Part shown: piece by piece, positions 5,432-48,502 of the stretch | Layout: each line of letters starts with the position of its first letter | Position numbering within the stretch: the first letter of the stretch is position 1 | From: Symploca sp. SIO1C2 | GTDB lineage: Bacteria > Cyanobacteriota > Cyanobacteriia > Cyanobacteriales > Coleofasciculaceae | Direction of reading: 5' to 3' | DNA length: 64,000 nt | Assembly: GCA_010672925.1 (NCBI GenBank) | Contig: JAAHFP010000001.1 | Coordinates: forward strand, 639,250-703,249 | Position numbers and translations under genes: made by a program | The notes under the pieces: generated by a model | Databases searched by the model: none | What the model was told of the DNA's origin: nothing | The model's input: only the letters and a program-made list of their open reading frames with translations

Positions 5432-6088
5432 ATGAATCAAGCACCAAGTAATCATGACTTCTTATCTCAAACAAATCTAACCTCCACCTCTAATTATAAA
5501 TTTGGAAAAATGTTAGATGATTTTAAAGCAGATATTAAGCGATATGAATTGTTGGGAATTAATCCTTGGTTTATTATCTTGATAACAAGACAAGGACTAT
5601 GGATTATGAATCATTATAGATTTAGCCGTTGGGTTCACCACCAAATTCATTTTCCTGTGATTCGACAGGTTTTGAAAATATTGTGTATTATCTGGCAAAA
5701 GCTAATTGAAATCATTACGGGCTGCGAATTTCCAAATAGAGCGGAGATTGGAAAAGGGTTGTATATGCCCCATCCTGTTGGTATTACTATTCATACAGAT
5801 GCAAAACTTGGTGAAAACTGTAACTTAGGCCAACATGTTACTATCGGAGTCGGTGGAAGAGGAGAAAATAGAGGGATTCCTAAACTTGGAGATCGAGTTT
5901 TTGTAGGTCCAGGAGCTTGTATATTCGGATCTATCACTATCGGTAATGACGTCGCTATTGGCGCAAATGCTGTTGTTACTAAAGATTTACCAGATAATGC
6001 TGTAGCAGTAGGTATTCCAGCTAAAATAATTAACTACAAAGGTTCTCAACATTTAATTGATTATCCTGGTAAAGATTCTTCAAATTAA
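5432..6088 (+). CDS. Serine O-acetyltransferase-like hexapeptide-repeat acetyltransferase
   Basis: Protein of 218 residues from the ATG at 5432. The open frame reaches back to 5303, but that part overlaps the upstream gene and has no good start. An N-terminal helical half is followed by a left-handed beta-helix made of hexapeptide repeats (IGKGLYMPHPVGITIHTDAK, later VFVGPGACIFGSITIGNDVA, ending in AVVTKDLPDNAVAVGIPAK). The MPHP motif supplies the catalytic histidine of serine-acetyltransferase-like enzymes. In a glycan locus these proteins usually O-acetylate a sugar rather than serine. I infer sugar acetylation from position, but cysteine biosynthesis (CysE) cannot be excluded. Confidence 0.8.
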   Translation: MNQAPSNHDFLSQTNLTSTSNYKFGKMLDDFKADIKRYELLGINPWFIILITRQGLWIMNHYRFSRWVHHQIHFPVIRQVLKILCIIWQKLIEIITGCEFPNRAEIGKGLYMPHPVGITIHTDAKLGENCNLGQHVTIGVGGRGENRGIPKLGDRVFVGPGACIFGSITIGNDVAIGANAVVTKDLPDNAVAVGIPAKIINYKGSQHLIDYPGKDSSN

Positions 6089-45016: not shown

Positions 45017-48000
45017 TTAGCTTACGGCTTTCCTCGATCGCAAAATCTGCACAAAGGTATCGCTAACGGTATGATCCTTGGTATCAGCGGCATATTGAAT
45101 CAATTGTTCCCGCAGTTCTTGAGCTGCCGTTAATGGTAGTAAAGTAGCTAGTAGGAAGTATACTCCCCGAAATCGTGGGTCATTCATATGGTCAATTAAC
45201 CGGTTTTCCACCTCCTCACTGTCACCGAGGAAGTTTTGTACCAGGAAAAAGTCCATAATCTTGTCGTGGCGGAAGTACCATTCTTTCTTACTCTTCCCTT
45301 CCCTATCTGTCCACTGACGGCTGACTGCCATTTTGTATTTCTCGTCTTCTAGAGAGAGTAACTCTTGGTAAAAATCCGCTGCGGGGAGAGCTTTTTGATC
45401 ATTGAGACGCATCTGGTAGACGGCTTGGGAGAATTTTTTCAAGGGGAATTCGTAGCGCCATTCTTTCAGGAATTCCTCCGCCATCTGATTGTATTGTTGT
45501 TCTTGCAGGTGAAATAAATCCGGGGTTTTGCCTTGGGAGAGCATTAGGGAGATCAGGGTTAAATCCATCGGGTTGGAGAGGATACGTTGTGCTGCCTCTA
45601 ACTCTTCCTTCGGTTGTTGGAGATTAAGGTAATTCTTCTCCCTCAGCTTCCTCAGCTTCCTCAGCTCCCCCAGCTTTATAATATCGGTGAGATAAGCGGT
45701 GCAGGCTTTTTCGTAATTCTCACCTTGGACTTTCGCATCCTGGGGAAATCTATCCTGACGGGAGATTAAAAATTCCTGGATTTGCTGGGGTTCGAGGGGT
45801 TGTAAGTAGTAGGTTTTTGCAGTTGAAGGGGGTGTCCATTCCAAGGGTTGGGTGGTCATAATGATATTACCCCGGAAATAGCGCTCCACAAAATGGGTGA
45901 TTTTGGCACGGGTATCAGCAGTAATTTCATTTAGTCCATCGATGCAGATATCGATCGCTCCACTATAGATCAGGTTTTTCAGGAATGCGGCATCTTGAGC
46001 TTGTCCATGCAGTTTAGCTTGAATTGCTTCAATTACCCCTTGGCTGCACTTTTGTGCAGGCAGGTAAACTATGATTTGTTGGGAGTTGGCGACAAGATGG
46101 CGTAGGAACATGGATTTACCCCAGCCAGAATCTCCTTCTAAAACAATTTGCCCTTGGATACTGGGGAGTGCTTCCGTAATCGGTTTGATATCTCCGGAAC
46201 CGGGAATTTTTACCTGAGATTGGGGGAAGTAGGCCAGGTGTTGGAATGTATCTAATCCCGCATCAGCTTGTAGGGAAGGTTTAAAGGGTTCAAACAGTTT
46301 GCGGCGCAGGTAGGGAATCCAGGTAAGGAGAAAGCCTACGTAACCGACACCGAGAATTTTCCGTACCCAAGGGTTCCAAAAGAAGATGGCTTGGACTTGG
46401 GGAAATTTGGGGTAGGCGAAGATTAGGGCTAGCCAAAAAGTAATATGGATCAGGATAGTGTTGCGGGCTTTGAGTAGCCATTGCCAAAATTCGAGTTTGT
46501 TGATGGCTGACTTTACTGTATCCGCTTGGTGGTATTCGGATTTTTTGAGGTTGTTGTAGTGAGTTTGCAGTAAGGTAATGTCTTGAGATTTCCAAGGGAC
46601 TCGGCTGGTAACCTTGGCTATTTGGTTAGCTAAGTCTATTTGTAATCGTTGTAGTCCTTGAGTTCCTATCCAGGCATCCCGAAAGACTTCCAGGGTTTTT
46701 TTTGCTTCTTTGTATTTGAGTTTGGATTGAGCGTCGATTGTTTCTTGGGAGGGATTGCCCATCCATTTGAGTAAGGTTTTTACTTCATCTGTACCGCCAC
46801 CTAGGAAATAGGTTAAAAATCGCCAAAATTCAAAGTCTGACTCCTTTGGCTCATAGATACGATCTAGGATGACAACAACCTCGTTTAGCTCTAGTCTTCT
46901 GATCTTACCCAAGGCTAATGCTGCTGCATGGCGACGAAGATATAAGTCCACCTGTTCATCCTTGAGGAAGTTGAGAATTTCTGGAATGTGGGACTTAGCT
47001 GCCTCCCCAAAGTTACCCAAGGCTAATGCTGCACTGCCACGAACAAATGAGTCCACCTGTTCATCCTTGAGGAAGTTGAGAATTTCTGGAATGTGGGACT
47101 TAGTTGCCTCTCCGAAGTTACTCAAGGCTTCTGCTGCACTGCCACGAACAGATGAGTTCACCTGTTCATCTTTGAGGATGTTGAGAATTTCTGGAATGTG
47201 GGACTTAGTTGCCTCTCCGAAGTTACCCAAGGCTTCTGCTGCACTGCGACGAACAAATGAGTCCACCTGTTCATCTTGGAGGATGTTGAGAATTTCTGGA
47301 ATGTGAGACTTAGCTGCCTCTCCGAAGTTACCCAAGACTACTGCTGCACTCTTACGAACAGATAAGTTCACCTGTTCATCTTGGAGAATGTTGAGGATTT
47401 CTAGAATGTGGGACTCAGCTGCCTCCCCCAAGTTGCTCAATGCATATGCTGCACTCTCACGAACAGATAAGTTCACCTGTTCATCTTGGAGGATGTTGAG
47501 GATTTCTGGAATAGAGGACTTAGCTGCTTCCCCGAAGTTACCCAAGGCTACTGCTGCACTCTCACGAACAGATAAGTTCACCTGTTCATCTTGGAGGATG
47601 TTGAGGATTTCTGGAATAGAGGACTTAGCTGCTTCCCCGAAGTTACCCAAGGCTACTGCTGCACCGCCACGAACCAATGAGTCCACCTGTTCATCTTTGA
47701 GGATGTTGAGGATTTCTGGAATAGAGGACTTAGCTGCTTCCCCGAAGTTACCCAAGGCTACTGCTGCACCGCCACGAACCAATGAGTCCACCTGTTCATC
47801 TTTGAGGATGTTGAGGATTTCTGGAATGTGGGACTCAGCTGCTTCCCCGAAGTTACCCAAGGCTTCTGCTGCAACGCCACGAATATTTGAGTCCACCTGT
47901 TCATCTTGGAGGAAATTGAGGATTTCTGGAATGTGGGACTTAGCTGCTTCCCCGAAGTTACCCAAGGCTTCTGCTGCACCGCCACGAATATTTGAGTCCA

Positions 48001-48502
48001 CCTGCTCATCTTTGAGGAAATTGAGGATTTCTGGAATGTGGGACTTAGCTGTCTCACCGAAGTTGCTCAATGCATATGCTGCACTGCTACGAATCCATGA
48101 GTCCACCTGTTCATCTTGGAGGATGTTGAGGATGTCTGGAATAGAGGACTTAGCAGCTTCCCCGAAGTTACCCAAGGTTAGTGCTGCTCTGCTACGAACA
48201 TCTGAGTCCACCTGTTCATCTTTGAGGATGCCTGCAACTTTTTTAGCAAGATCCTCCGGTTTTTTAACCACTGCTTTCAAGTCTTCCGGTTCGTATCGAG
48301 TTAATTGGTATAAAGCATCTCTCTTCACTTTGTCATACCCATCATCAAGGGCAGCAACAATACCGTCAATCAGCCAAGGTTGCGGTTTAGGCGTTTCTTG
48401 GGCGCTTACCCAAGGGAGGGAGAGGAGGAGGGTAAGGAAAAGAGTAAATGGGAATAGGAAAAAGGGGGAGCATTTGCGCAGCTTGCGGTGAGTTTTGGGC
48501 AT
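45017..48502 (-). CDS. Transmembrane HEAT-repeat STAND/NACHT-like NTPase
   Basis: Protein of about 1161 residues from the ATG at 48502; a TTG at 48541 would add 13 residues ahead of the signal peptide. Residues 1-35 are a Sec signal ending in SLPWVSAQE. Residues about 85-550 hold thirteen 35-residue HEAT-like repeats (core LGNFGEAAKSHIPEILNFL, then DEQVDS-VR-AAEA). A linker follows with two helices (ILIHITFWLALIFAY, about 680, and VGYVGFLLTWIPYL, about 720). The C-terminal P-loop module has Walker A LEGDSGWGKSMFLRHL (about 785-800) and Walker B IDICIDGLNEIT (about 850). The repeats would face the periplasm and the NTPase the cytoplasm. A nonamer array encodes GELRKLRKLRE inside the NTPase. 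The role is unknown; sensing or defence is an inference. Confidence 0.8.
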   Translation of the reverse strand: MPKTHRKLRKCSPFFLFPFTLFLTLLLSLPWVSAQETPKPQPWLIDGIVAALDDGYDKVKRDALYQLTRYEPEDLKAVVKKPEDLAKKVAGILKDEQVDSDVRSRAALTLGNFGEAAKSSIPDILNILQDEQVDSWIRSSAAYALSNFGETAKSHIPEILNFLKDEQVDSNIRGGAAEALGNFGEAAKSHIPEILNFLQDEQVDSNIRGVAAEALGNFGEAAESHIPEILNILKDEQVDSLVRGGAAVALGNFGEAAKSSIPEILNILKDEQVDSLVRGGAAVALGNFGEAAKSSIPEILNILQDEQVNLSVRESAAVALGNFGEAAKSSIPEILNILQDEQVNLSVRESAAYALSNLGEAAESHILEILNILQDEQVNLSVRKSAAVVLGNFGEAAKSHIPEILNILQDEQVDSFVRRSAAEALGNFGEATKSHIPEILNILKDEQVNSSVRGSAAEALSNFGEATKSHIPEILNFLKDEQVDSFVRGSAALALGNFGEAAKSHIPEILNFLKDEQVDLYLRRHAAALALGKIRRLELNEVVVILDRIYEPKESDFEFWRFLTYFLGGGTDEVKTLLKWMGNPSQETIDAQSKLKYKEAKKTLEVFRDAWIGTQGLQRLQIDLANQIAKVTSRVPWKSQDITLLQTHYNNLKKSEYHQADTVKSAINKLEFWQWLLKARNTILIHITFWLALIFAYPKFPQVQAIFFWNPWVRKILGVGYVGFLLTWIPYLRRKLFEPFKPSLQADAGLDTFQHLAYFPQSQVKIPGSGDIKPITEALPSIQGQIVLEGDSGWGKSMFLRHLVANSQQIIVYLPAQKCSQGVIEAIQAKLHGQAQDAAFLKNLIYSGAIDICIDGLNEITADTRAKITHFVERYFRGNIIMTTQPLEWTPPSTAKTYYLQPLEPQQIQEFLISRQDRFPQDAKVQGENYEKACTAYLTDIIKLGELRKLRKLREKNYLNLQQPKEELEAAQRILSNPMDLTLISLMLSQGKTPDLFHLQEQQYNQMAEEFLKEWRYEFPLKKFSQAVYQMRLNDQKALPAADFYQELLSLEDEKYKMAVSRQWTDREGKSKKEWYFRHDKIMDFFLVQNFLGDSEEVENRLIDHMNDPRFRGVYFLLATLLPLTAAQELREQLIQYAADTKDHTVSDTFVQILRSRKAVS
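45641..45676. repeat. In-frame nonamer array inside the STAND NTPase gene
   Basis: Four 9-base units (CCTCAGCTT three times with one variant, then CCCCAGCTT) encode a charged ELRKLRKLRE stretch in the NTPase part. The unit is the same as in intergenic arrays at 35046, 43864 and 53370. The frame is kept because the unit is a multiple of three. Confidence 0.85.
46880..48240. repeat. 105-bp coding tandem repeats (HEAT array)
   Basis: Thirteen tandem units of 105 bp encode the HEAT-like array. Some neighbours are nearly identical at DNA level, for example the units at about 47645-47750 and 47750-47855, which share a stretch of about 90 identical bases. Confidence 0.9.

What the first reader, a model, noticed from the sequence alone, without database searches (positions are those of the whole stretch)
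45017..48502. Membrane-spanning STAND NTPase with a periplasmic HEAT-repeat array
A signal peptide, thirteen HEAT-like repeats, two membrane helices and a P-loop NTPase (GDSGWGKS, IDICIDGLNEIT) lie in one chain. This layout puts the repeat sensor outside the cytoplasm and the switch NTPase inside. Known bacterial STAND defence proteins usually carry sensors in the cytoplasm. A toxin-antitoxin pair and a PD-(D/E)XK gene lie within 3.5 kb. It could be an envelope sensor, for example for phage adsorption or surface contact.
Basis: partly seen in the sequence, partly recalled or inferred. Interest (0 to 1): 0.75.

Follow-up and report, generated by a model that had tools for sequence, protein, structure and literature searches.

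The report
Membrane-spanning NLR-like receptor, variable outer sensor
A cyanobacterium carries a membrane protein that joins an apparently exported repeat domain, whose likely binding-face residues change very fast, to a switch folded like animal immune receptors, so it looks like a surface recognition receptor of unknown target.

Summary
In detail: one intact 1161-residue gene encodes a signal peptide, 13 HEAT units of 35 residues, a membrane region and a STAND NTPase. (1) The NTPase half models as a NACHT module, closest to solved NLRC4, NLRP3 and NOD2 (best Z 18.5 over 379 residues). (2) Repeat residues 7, 10, 11 and 14, matching four of the six variable positions of engineered alphaRep binders, are hypervariable while the rest is homogenised. 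In 41 arrays pN/pS is 1.74 there, about 0.6 elsewhere. Nostocales orthologues at one locus with 93-99% identical NTPase parts share few or no variable-residue sets. One correction: a signal peptide plus two true membrane helices would put the NTPase outside; the evidence favours one crossing, unproven. Relatives are mostly cyanobacterial, with rare ones on rhizobial plasmids and elsewhere; the rhizobial loci add a signal-peptide partner gene. The defence-neighbourhood argument is not supported: neighbours are not conserved, and DUF433 and PDDEXK_2 genes are abundant in this genome. Best reading: a transmembrane NACHT receptor with a fast-diversifying extracytoplasmic recognition array; ligand and output unknown.

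The parts
45017..48502 (-). whole gene, 1161 aa, ATG start, intact
48401..48502 (-). signal peptide, residues 1-34 (VSA|Q)
   Evidence: similar starts in 49 of 55 assessable homologues
48221..48400 (-). N-terminal cap, residues 35-94 (contains WLIDGIVAALDD)
   Evidence: conserved WQxxGIxAAL-like motif in homologues; helical in the model
46856..48220 (-). array of 13 HEAT units of 35 aa, residues 95-549; unit positions 7, 10, 11, 14 hypervariable
   Evidence: pLDDT mostly 80-95 over the array
46460..46855 (-). conserved helical linker, residues 550-681, leading into the membrane helix
   Evidence: A2 alignment and model
46403..46459 (-). membrane helix 1, residues 682-700, C-terminal end of one long predicted helix (660-699)
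46283..46402 (-). second hydrophobic stretch and basic tail, residues 701-740 (contains QAIFFWNPWVRKILGVGYVGFLLTWIPYLRRKLFEPF); probably interfacial or re-entrant
   Evidence: strongly conserved in A2 and A5; less favourable than stretch 1 in 72 of 72 rows; model confidence low here
45020..46282 (-). NACHT-type STAND NTPase with helical and winged-helix parts, residues 741-1161
46112..46135 (-). Walker A GDSGWGKS, residues 790-797
45920..45955 (-). Walker B region IDICIDGLNEIT, residues 850-861

Best explanation
The gene encodes a transmembrane NACHT (NLR-like) receptor. The signal peptide exports an alpha-solenoid of near-identical HEAT units to the periplasm or thylakoid lumen. One face of the solenoid, set by unit positions 7, 10, 11 and 14 (and partly 6), binds an external macromolecule whose identity changes or is contested, which drives fast diversification by repeat duplication, homogenisation and substitution. 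Binding is passed through one long helix across the inner membrane to the cytoplasmic NACHT module, which would exchange ADP for ATP and oligomerise. The strongly conserved membrane-surface segment is the most likely output element in this minimal form (membrane damage or clustering), while other family members add C-terminal modules. Shown by computation: domains, NACHT-like fold of the model, hypervariable positions, fast array turnover. Inferred: orientation, ligand binding, switch behaviour, output.
For: Signal-peptide-like starts in 49 of 55 assessable homologues, in two diverged N-terminal types. Stretch 2 is less favourable than stretch 1 in 72 of 72 rows, and the deeper model breaks it into short helices. 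NACHT: Foldseek's first eight matches are NLRC4, NLRP3 and NOD2, E 9.4e-6 to 8.2e-5; VIA Z 18.5, rmsd 4.8, 379 residues, the first 33 rows are entries titled with an NLR. Hypervariability: window pN 0.51 at the four positions against 0.08 at the others not fixed by the search pattern; 41 arrays, 333 units, pN/pS 1.74 (95% 1.43-2.15) against 0.60. The positions fit alphaRep variable positions 19, 22, 23, 26. Same-locus orthologues with 97-99% NTPase identity share no variable quadruplet in 8 of 10 pairs.
Against: The Pfam NACHT model scores 15.6 bits, below its 26.7 cut-off. Foldseek TM-scores over the whole model are only 0.28-0.41 for the NLR rows. Stretch 2 is a continuous helix in the shallower full-length model, at pLDDT under 50, and Wimley-White sums favour both stretches, so a second span is not excluded. 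Charge bias is mild: K+R is 3.5 in 32 residues before stretch 1, 3.0 in 20 between, 3.7 in 20 after. Pooled pairwise pN/pS is not a formal selection test; in 7 of 41 arrays HV pN does not exceed HV pS. One overlapping register (4, 7, 8, 11) has a higher ratio, 2.87, through low pS though lower pN. Cytoplasmic-type NACHT-HEAT proteins of the same genome vary at the same positions, mostly more weakly, so variability is not specific to exported arrays. Many homologue arrays come from draft assemblies, in which 105-base repeats can be collapsed. No effector domain, partner conserved in cyanobacteria, or defence neighbourhood was found.
Confidence: 0.6

Rival explanations
1. It is specifically an anti-phage sensor: the outer array detects phage adsorption or a phage particle and the NTPase triggers abortive infection.
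For: STAND/NACHT ATPases are described as antiviral sensors (PMC10907252, passages); fast turnover at the likely binding face fits an arms race.
Against: No PADLOC family matches more than 2 of 141 neighbour ORFs. PADLOC hits of the protein itself are two HEAT cross-matches and one at E 0.41. No copy in 50,697 phage records. A contest with competitors, toxins or kin fits equally well.
Confidence: 0.3
2. It is a self/non-self or kin recognition receptor of filamentous bacteria, acting in cell-cell contact like fungal HET NLRs.
For: Repeat homogenisation plus hypervariable interaction positions is the pattern described for fungal NLR repeats (PMC4986451, passages). 78 of the best 80 relatives (of 166) are cyanobacteria by record title, most of filamentous genera (recalled).
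Against: No cell-contact phenotype known. The survey is biased to close relatives of the query. Rhizobial relatives are not filamentous (recalled) and show few HEAT anchors, no homogenised array.
Confidence: 0.25
3. It is an ordinary envelope or photosynthesis-related sensor or scaffold, and the variable positions only reflect relaxed constraint on a solvent-exposed helix face.
For: HEAT/PBS-lyase repeats are common in cyanobacteria (CpcE and NblB models cross-match). The same face varies in cytoplasmic NACHT-HEAT proteins.
Against: Relaxed constraint alone should not give pN/pS above 1 (1.74, 95% 1.43-2.15). NTPase parts stay 97-99% identical while variable sets are replaced.
Confidence: 0.15
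4. Topology differs: both hydrophobic stretches span (NTPase extracytoplasmic), or the N-terminus is not exported and the whole protein is a cytoplasmic, hairpin-anchored STAND.
For: Two conserved hydrophobic stretches; Wimley-White sums are favourable for both; the charge bias across stretch 1 is mild.
Against: Conserved Walker motifs imply access to ATP. Signal-peptide-like starts across two N-terminal types. Stretch 2 less favourable in 72 of 72 rows, and it contains D and H in rhizobial relatives. Five homologues carry a second STAND-like NTPase after the NACHT (by eye; one scanned).
Confidence: 0.12

Closest known systems
Animal NLR NACHT modules (NLRC4, NLRP3, NOD2)
   Same: NACHT core fold of the model over about 350-380 residues; Walker A and DGLNE-type Walker B
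   Different: Sensor repeats lie N-terminal, apparently exported, and are HEAT, not LRR; membrane anchor; no CARD/PYD match; 10-14% sequence identity in the first 33 rows
Bacterial NACHT/Avs antiviral STANDs
   Same: STAND NTPase joined to a sensor
   Different: Those usually have an N-terminal effector and a C-terminal sensor (PMC10907252, passages); here the sensor is N-terminal and exported, and no effector domain is recognised
DGR-diversified NACHT antigen sensors of Thiohalocapsa (PMC10907252, passages)
   Same: Variable sensor joined to NACHT in multicellular bacteria; one target is predicted there to be periplasmic, the nearest precedent found
   Different: C-type lectin domain mutated by a diversity-generating retroelement; no template-like copy of the repeats was found in this genome
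Fungal NLRs with high internal repeat conservation (PMC4986451, passages)
   Same: Homogenised repeats, repeat number change, a few positively selected positions per repeat on the interaction face
   Different: Intracellular, WD/ANK/TPR-class repeats after the NOD, eukaryotic
alphaRep artificial HEAT binders (PMC3754942, passages; most PDB sequence matches)
   Same: Variable positions around VRxxAAxAL: four of their six (19, 22, 23, 26) fit ours, position 18 fits our moderately variable 6
   Different: Engineered, 31-residue units (recalled), no membrane or NTPase part; their position 30 (our 18) is not especially variable here
Cytoplasmic-type NACHT-HEAT proteins of the same genome
   Same: HEAT arrays that vary more at the same positions (11 of 11)
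   Different: HEAT array after the NACHT, no exported N-terminal array

Membership tests
STAND / NACHT NTPases | Walker A P-loop | tested here: met
   GDSGWGKS; G, S, G, G, K invariant in A2
STAND / NACHT NTPases | Walker B with DG[LF][ND]E signature (motif recalled) | tested here: met
   ICIDGLNE; D-G-L-N-E invariant in A2
STAND / NACHT NTPases | NBD plus helical and winged-helix fold | tested here: met
   on a predicted model: VIA Z 18.5 to NLRC4, 379 residues, rmsd 4.8, unrelated rows begin near Z 10.4; Foldseek E 9.4e-6 to 8.2e-5 but TM-scores 0.28-0.41
STAND / NACHT NTPases | Pfam NACHT gathering score (a detection threshold, not a structural feature) | tested here: not met
   15.6 bits against 26.7; the profile from 18 homologues reaches NLRC4 in the PDB at E 2.4e-4
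STAND / NACHT NTPases | NTP-dependent switch and oligomerisation | not testable with these tools
   needs biochemistry
Avs / antiviral STAND defence systems | N-terminal effector and C-terminal sensor | tested here: not met
   order inverted; no effector domain recognised
Avs / antiviral STAND defence systems | defence-island association | tested here: not met
   no PADLOC family in more than 2 of 141 neighbour ORFs from 37 of 80 loci
Transmembrane receptors | exported N-terminal sensor | tested here: met
   signal-peptide-like start in 49 of 55 assessable homologues; a simple hydrophobicity and charge rule, no trained predictor
Transmembrane receptors | odd number of spans between sensor and cytoplasmic output | tested here: inconclusive
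   stretch 2 less favourable in 72 of 72 rows; both favourable on the Wimley-White scale; models disagree at low confidence
High-internal-conservation variable repeats | homogenised repeats with few hypervariable positions on one helix face | tested here: met
High-internal-conservation variable repeats | formal, recombination-aware positive selection | not tested
   only pooled pairwise pN/pS with bootstrap over arrays
DGR targets | template repeat and reverse transcriptase | tested here: inconclusive
   no second copy resembling the repeats except two 74% matches inside other NACHT frames; a reverse transcriptase was not searched for

The most novel reading that the evidence does not exclude
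A bacterial surface NLR: an antibody-like, rapidly re-edited HEAT array outside the cell coupled through one membrane helix to an NLR-type NACHT switch inside, used for non-self recognition at the cell envelope of multicellular bacteria.
Probability: 0.4. Interest if true: 0.92.

Novelty: new variant of a known kind. Interest (0 to 1): 0.8.

Why it matters
NLRs are described as intracellular receptors. A family that keeps the NACHT switch but moves a fast-diversifying sensor across the membrane would be a bacterial counterpart of surface immune receptors. It would also supply natural, already diversified alphaRep-like binders, and make it directly testable what filamentous cyanobacteria distinguish at their surface.

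Tried and rejected
Defence-island support: neighbours clustered and scanned with PADLOC and Pfam. PADLOC matches were scattered (23 families, at most 2 of 141 ORFs). Pfam found PIN in 3 and PemK in 2 of 141. No random-gene control was run, so enrichment was not formally tested. PADLOC matches of the protein itself (HEAT_CxxC_PDDEXK, RT_UG20) and many Pfam matches (Vitellogenin_N, Exo70_C, importin and others) lie in the HEAT array and are taken as cross-matches. A diversity-generating retroelement was considered because variable codons 7 and 11 change at bases 1 and 2 and much less at base 3; no template-like copy was found, and a reverse transcriptase was not searched for. Pfam gave nothing above cut-off for the C-terminal tails tested or the rhizobial partner; the nearest was nSTAND1 at 26.1 bits (cut-off 27.1) in L168. 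The full-length model is poor in the membrane and NTPase parts; the fold statement rests on the deeper model. Array length by regular expression worked for only 25 of 91 proteins and is not used.

Literature: 10 searches. None listed a paper that by title or abstract start treats an exported HEAT array fused to NACHT; that is limited to this library and these terms. Passages only were seen of PMC7159879, PMC10907252, PMC3754942, PMC4986451 and PMC1592074; all other papers only as search listings.

Rows dropped: 50 of 91 genes gave fewer than four units spaced at 35 residues, or held N, and were left out; 31 of 91 were left out. 25 of 80 loci were not assessable for a signal peptide. Some rows count a gene twice (window, L174, L175; L153/L154 give identical numbers; L194/L196 look like duplicate contigs). 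The hydrophobicity scales were typed from recall. Whole-genome searches scored only part of their candidates (150 of 276; at most 4 per genome).

Odds: after rechecking the charge counts I lowered the estimate for 'sensor outside, NTPase inside' from 0.8 to 0.75.
Full report
What is there. The minus-strand frame 45017-48502 is intact and encodes 1161 residues. It reads as signal peptide (1-34), cap, 13 HEAT units of 35 residues (95-549), helical linker, a membrane region (about 682-740) and an NTPase (741-1161). HEAT is supported by Pfam HEAT_2 at E 1.6e-62, and the DNA repeat has period 105, 12.6 copies and 89% matches. Pfam's NACHT model reaches only 15.6 bits against a cut-off of 26.7.

The NTPase models as a NACHT module. 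A 66-row alignment of residues 520-1161 (A2) gave a model with mean pLDDT 82.4 and pTM 0.63. Foldseek's first eight PDB matches are NLRC4, NLRP3 and NOD2 entries (E 9.4e-6 to 8.2e-5, TM-score by query length 0.28-0.41). VIA-align gave Z 18.5 to NLRC4 (379 residues, rmsd 4.8); its first 33 rows are entries titled with an NLR, and the first clearly unrelated row has Z 10.4. A profile of 18 homologues independently finds NLRC4 among PDB sequences at E 2.4e-4. The P-loop residues and DGLNE are invariant in A2.

Topology. With an N-terminal signal peptide, two full spans would put the NTPase back outside. Stretch 1 is the C-terminal end of one long predicted helix (660-699). Stretch 2 (QAIFFWNPWVRKILGVGYVGFLLTWIPYLRRK) is less favourable for insertion in 72 of 72 rows on a biological scale typed from recall, and is broken into short helices in the deeper model at pLDDT 66-69. 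Against this, the Wimley-White sums favour both stretches, the shallower full-length model shows a continuous helix there at pLDDT under 50, and charge bias is mild: K+R is 3.5 in the 32 residues before stretch 1, 3.0 in 20 between, 3.7 in 20 after. One crossing plus an interfacial element is the best reading, but it is not proven. Export rests on a signal-peptide-like start in 49 of 55 assessable homologues by a simple rule. The six misses comprise two near-threshold starts (L170, L174) and four frames without the N-terminus; 25 of 80 loci were not assessable.

Hypervariable sensor. In the window the 12 units compared differ by 1 to 23 of 105 bases between neighbours, and amino-acid changes concentrate at unit positions 7, 10, 11 and 14. 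There pN is 0.51, against 0.08 at the other positions not fixed by the search pattern. In 41 arrays with 333 units (of 91 genes examined), pN/pS is 1.74 at these positions (95% 1.43-2.15 by bootstrap over arrays) and 0.60 elsewhere. With pattern-fixed positions removed it is 0.59 elsewhere, and 8 of 27,405 four-position sets have higher pN. HV pN exceeds HV pS in 34 of 41 arrays; for the other free positions pN exceeds pS in 2 of 41. One overlapping register (4, 7, 8, 11) has a higher ratio, 2.87, because pS is low, though its pN is lower. With looser unit spacing, HV pN exceeds framework pN in 58 of 60 arrays. The positions surround VRxxAAxAL and fit variable positions 19, 22, 23 and 26 of alphaRep binders, whose six are 18, 19, 22, 23, 26 and 30 (PMC3754942, passages). 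The correspondence is my reading of the alignments. In the full-length model these positions fall in the first helix of each unit as numbered here (for example 135-146); that this is the concave, binding side is recalled from HEAT structures.

Turnover. Ten Nostocales loci that share flanking-gene families fall into two groups of five. In one, NTPase identity is 97-99% and 8 of 10 pairs share no four-residue variable set; in the other it is 93-97% and 7 of 10 pairs share none; the most shared is 2. Recognised units range from 4 to 13. Caution: draft assemblies can miscount repeats, but that does not readily explain different residues. Homogenised repeats with a few selected interaction positions are described for fungal NLRs (PMC4986451, passages).

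Comparison within the genome. Of 53 NACHT-model matches (150 of 276 candidates scored; the window gene is not among them), none has four or more HEAT anchors before the NACHT; 11 have at least four anchors, all after the NACHT. In 11 of 11 the same four positions vary more than the framework, mostly more weakly than in the window. So the variable HEAT array is shared with cytoplasmic-type NACHT proteins; the exported, N-terminal placement is what differs. Several other NACHT proteins of the genome have N-terminal multi-helix membrane parts.

Family. Counting any part of the C-terminal query, 14 of 20 family genomes match, own included; with the NTPase profile 10 of 20. In a phylum sample it is 19 of 386, own included and some matches partial. 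A genome-collection scan found 166 relatives, best 80 kept: 78 cyanobacterial by title and two Competibacteraceae MAGs. In Pseudomonadota 2 of 398 genomes match, one of them the centre itself. Four of 72,556 plasmid records match (one Calothrix, three rhizobial), none of 50,697 phage records, and one IMG/VR contig. The rhizobial proteins keep the membrane motif and NACHT at 37-38% identity in A5, have an N-terminal region with few HEAT anchors, and a C-terminal tail; a signal-peptide start is visible in two of the three. A conserved gene of 166-168 residues follows directly in the three rhizobial loci and, by tblastn, in one unnamed Pseudomonadota genome (4 of 4 loci). It starts with a signal peptide in the three rhizobial loci, which is independent support for an extracytoplasmic sensor. 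Other variants: a second STAND-like NTPase at the C-terminus (L157, L160, L166, L168, L172 by eye; only L168 was scanned, nSTAND1 26.1 bits); another C-terminal tail (L077, L084, L085, L087, L088); and sensor-only genes ending before the membrane helix (L094, L095 twice, L096).

Context. No other ORF family recurs in more than 18 of 80 loci. PADLOC matches are scattered, at most 2 of 141 neighbour ORFs from 37 of 80 loci, although single strong ones exist. DUF433 (51 matches) and PDDEXK_2 (20 matches) are abundant in this genome.

Mechanism and confidence. Domain content and NACHT-type NTPase: high. Variable recognition face: about 0.75. Sensor outside and NTPase inside: about 0.75. Ligand-gated switch: inferred from the NLR class. 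Output: unknown; the strongly conserved membrane-surface segment is the best candidate in the minimal form. Anti-phage, anti-competitor or kin-recognition roles cannot be separated with sequence alone.

Noticed in passing
window 45641-45676: Four copies of a 9-base unit (CCTCAGCTT) encode an LRKLRKLRE-like insertion inside the NACHT part that the homologues aligned in A1 lack; it lies in the low-confidence stretch of the model.
   Followed up: partly
L238 7788-8288, L239 7707-8213, L241 7788-8288, L247 about 5521-6003: A gene of 166-168 residues with no Pfam family sits directly downstream of the four homologues of rhizobial type (three rhizobial plasmids, one unnamed Pseudomonadota genome); signal peptide visible in the first three; a likely periplasmic partner.
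   Followed up: partly
L094 2542-4890, L095 11744-14275 and 14596-16536, L096 2507-4522, L092 2882-4780: HEAT arrays with the same linker that stop just before the membrane helix, and one (L092) ending in a single membrane helix; possible free-standing variable sensors. The L095 pair is followed by two small genes resembling, by eye, the window's DUF433/DUF5615 pair.
   Followed up: partly
L157, L160, L166, L168, L172 C-termini: A second STAND-like NTPase fused after the NACHT (L168: nSTAND1 26.1 bits, cut-off 27.1), with a further P-loop gene family downstream in the same five loci.
   Followed up: partly
L080-L083, L090, L091, L177 N-termini: A different signal-peptide and solenoid type fused to the same membrane motif and NACHT, suggesting sensor exchange at the membrane boundary.
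   Followed up: no
whole genome G000: 53 NACHT matches (some on contigs that look like duplicates, such as C43/C234 and C41/C48), 51 DUF433 and 20 PDDEXK_2 matches; a large NACHT set.
   Followed up: partly
L245 7917-8957: A gene with an HEAAHVWQHQHG metallopeptidase-like motif (resembling DUF4157, recalled) lies next to the family member on an IMG/VR contig that is not obviously viral.
   Followed up: no
L099 7828-8115, L102 7367-7678: ORFs made of short tandem repeats (MNLKASL..., AEYQRFI...) upstream of several Nostoc copies, probably minisatellites.
   Followed up: no
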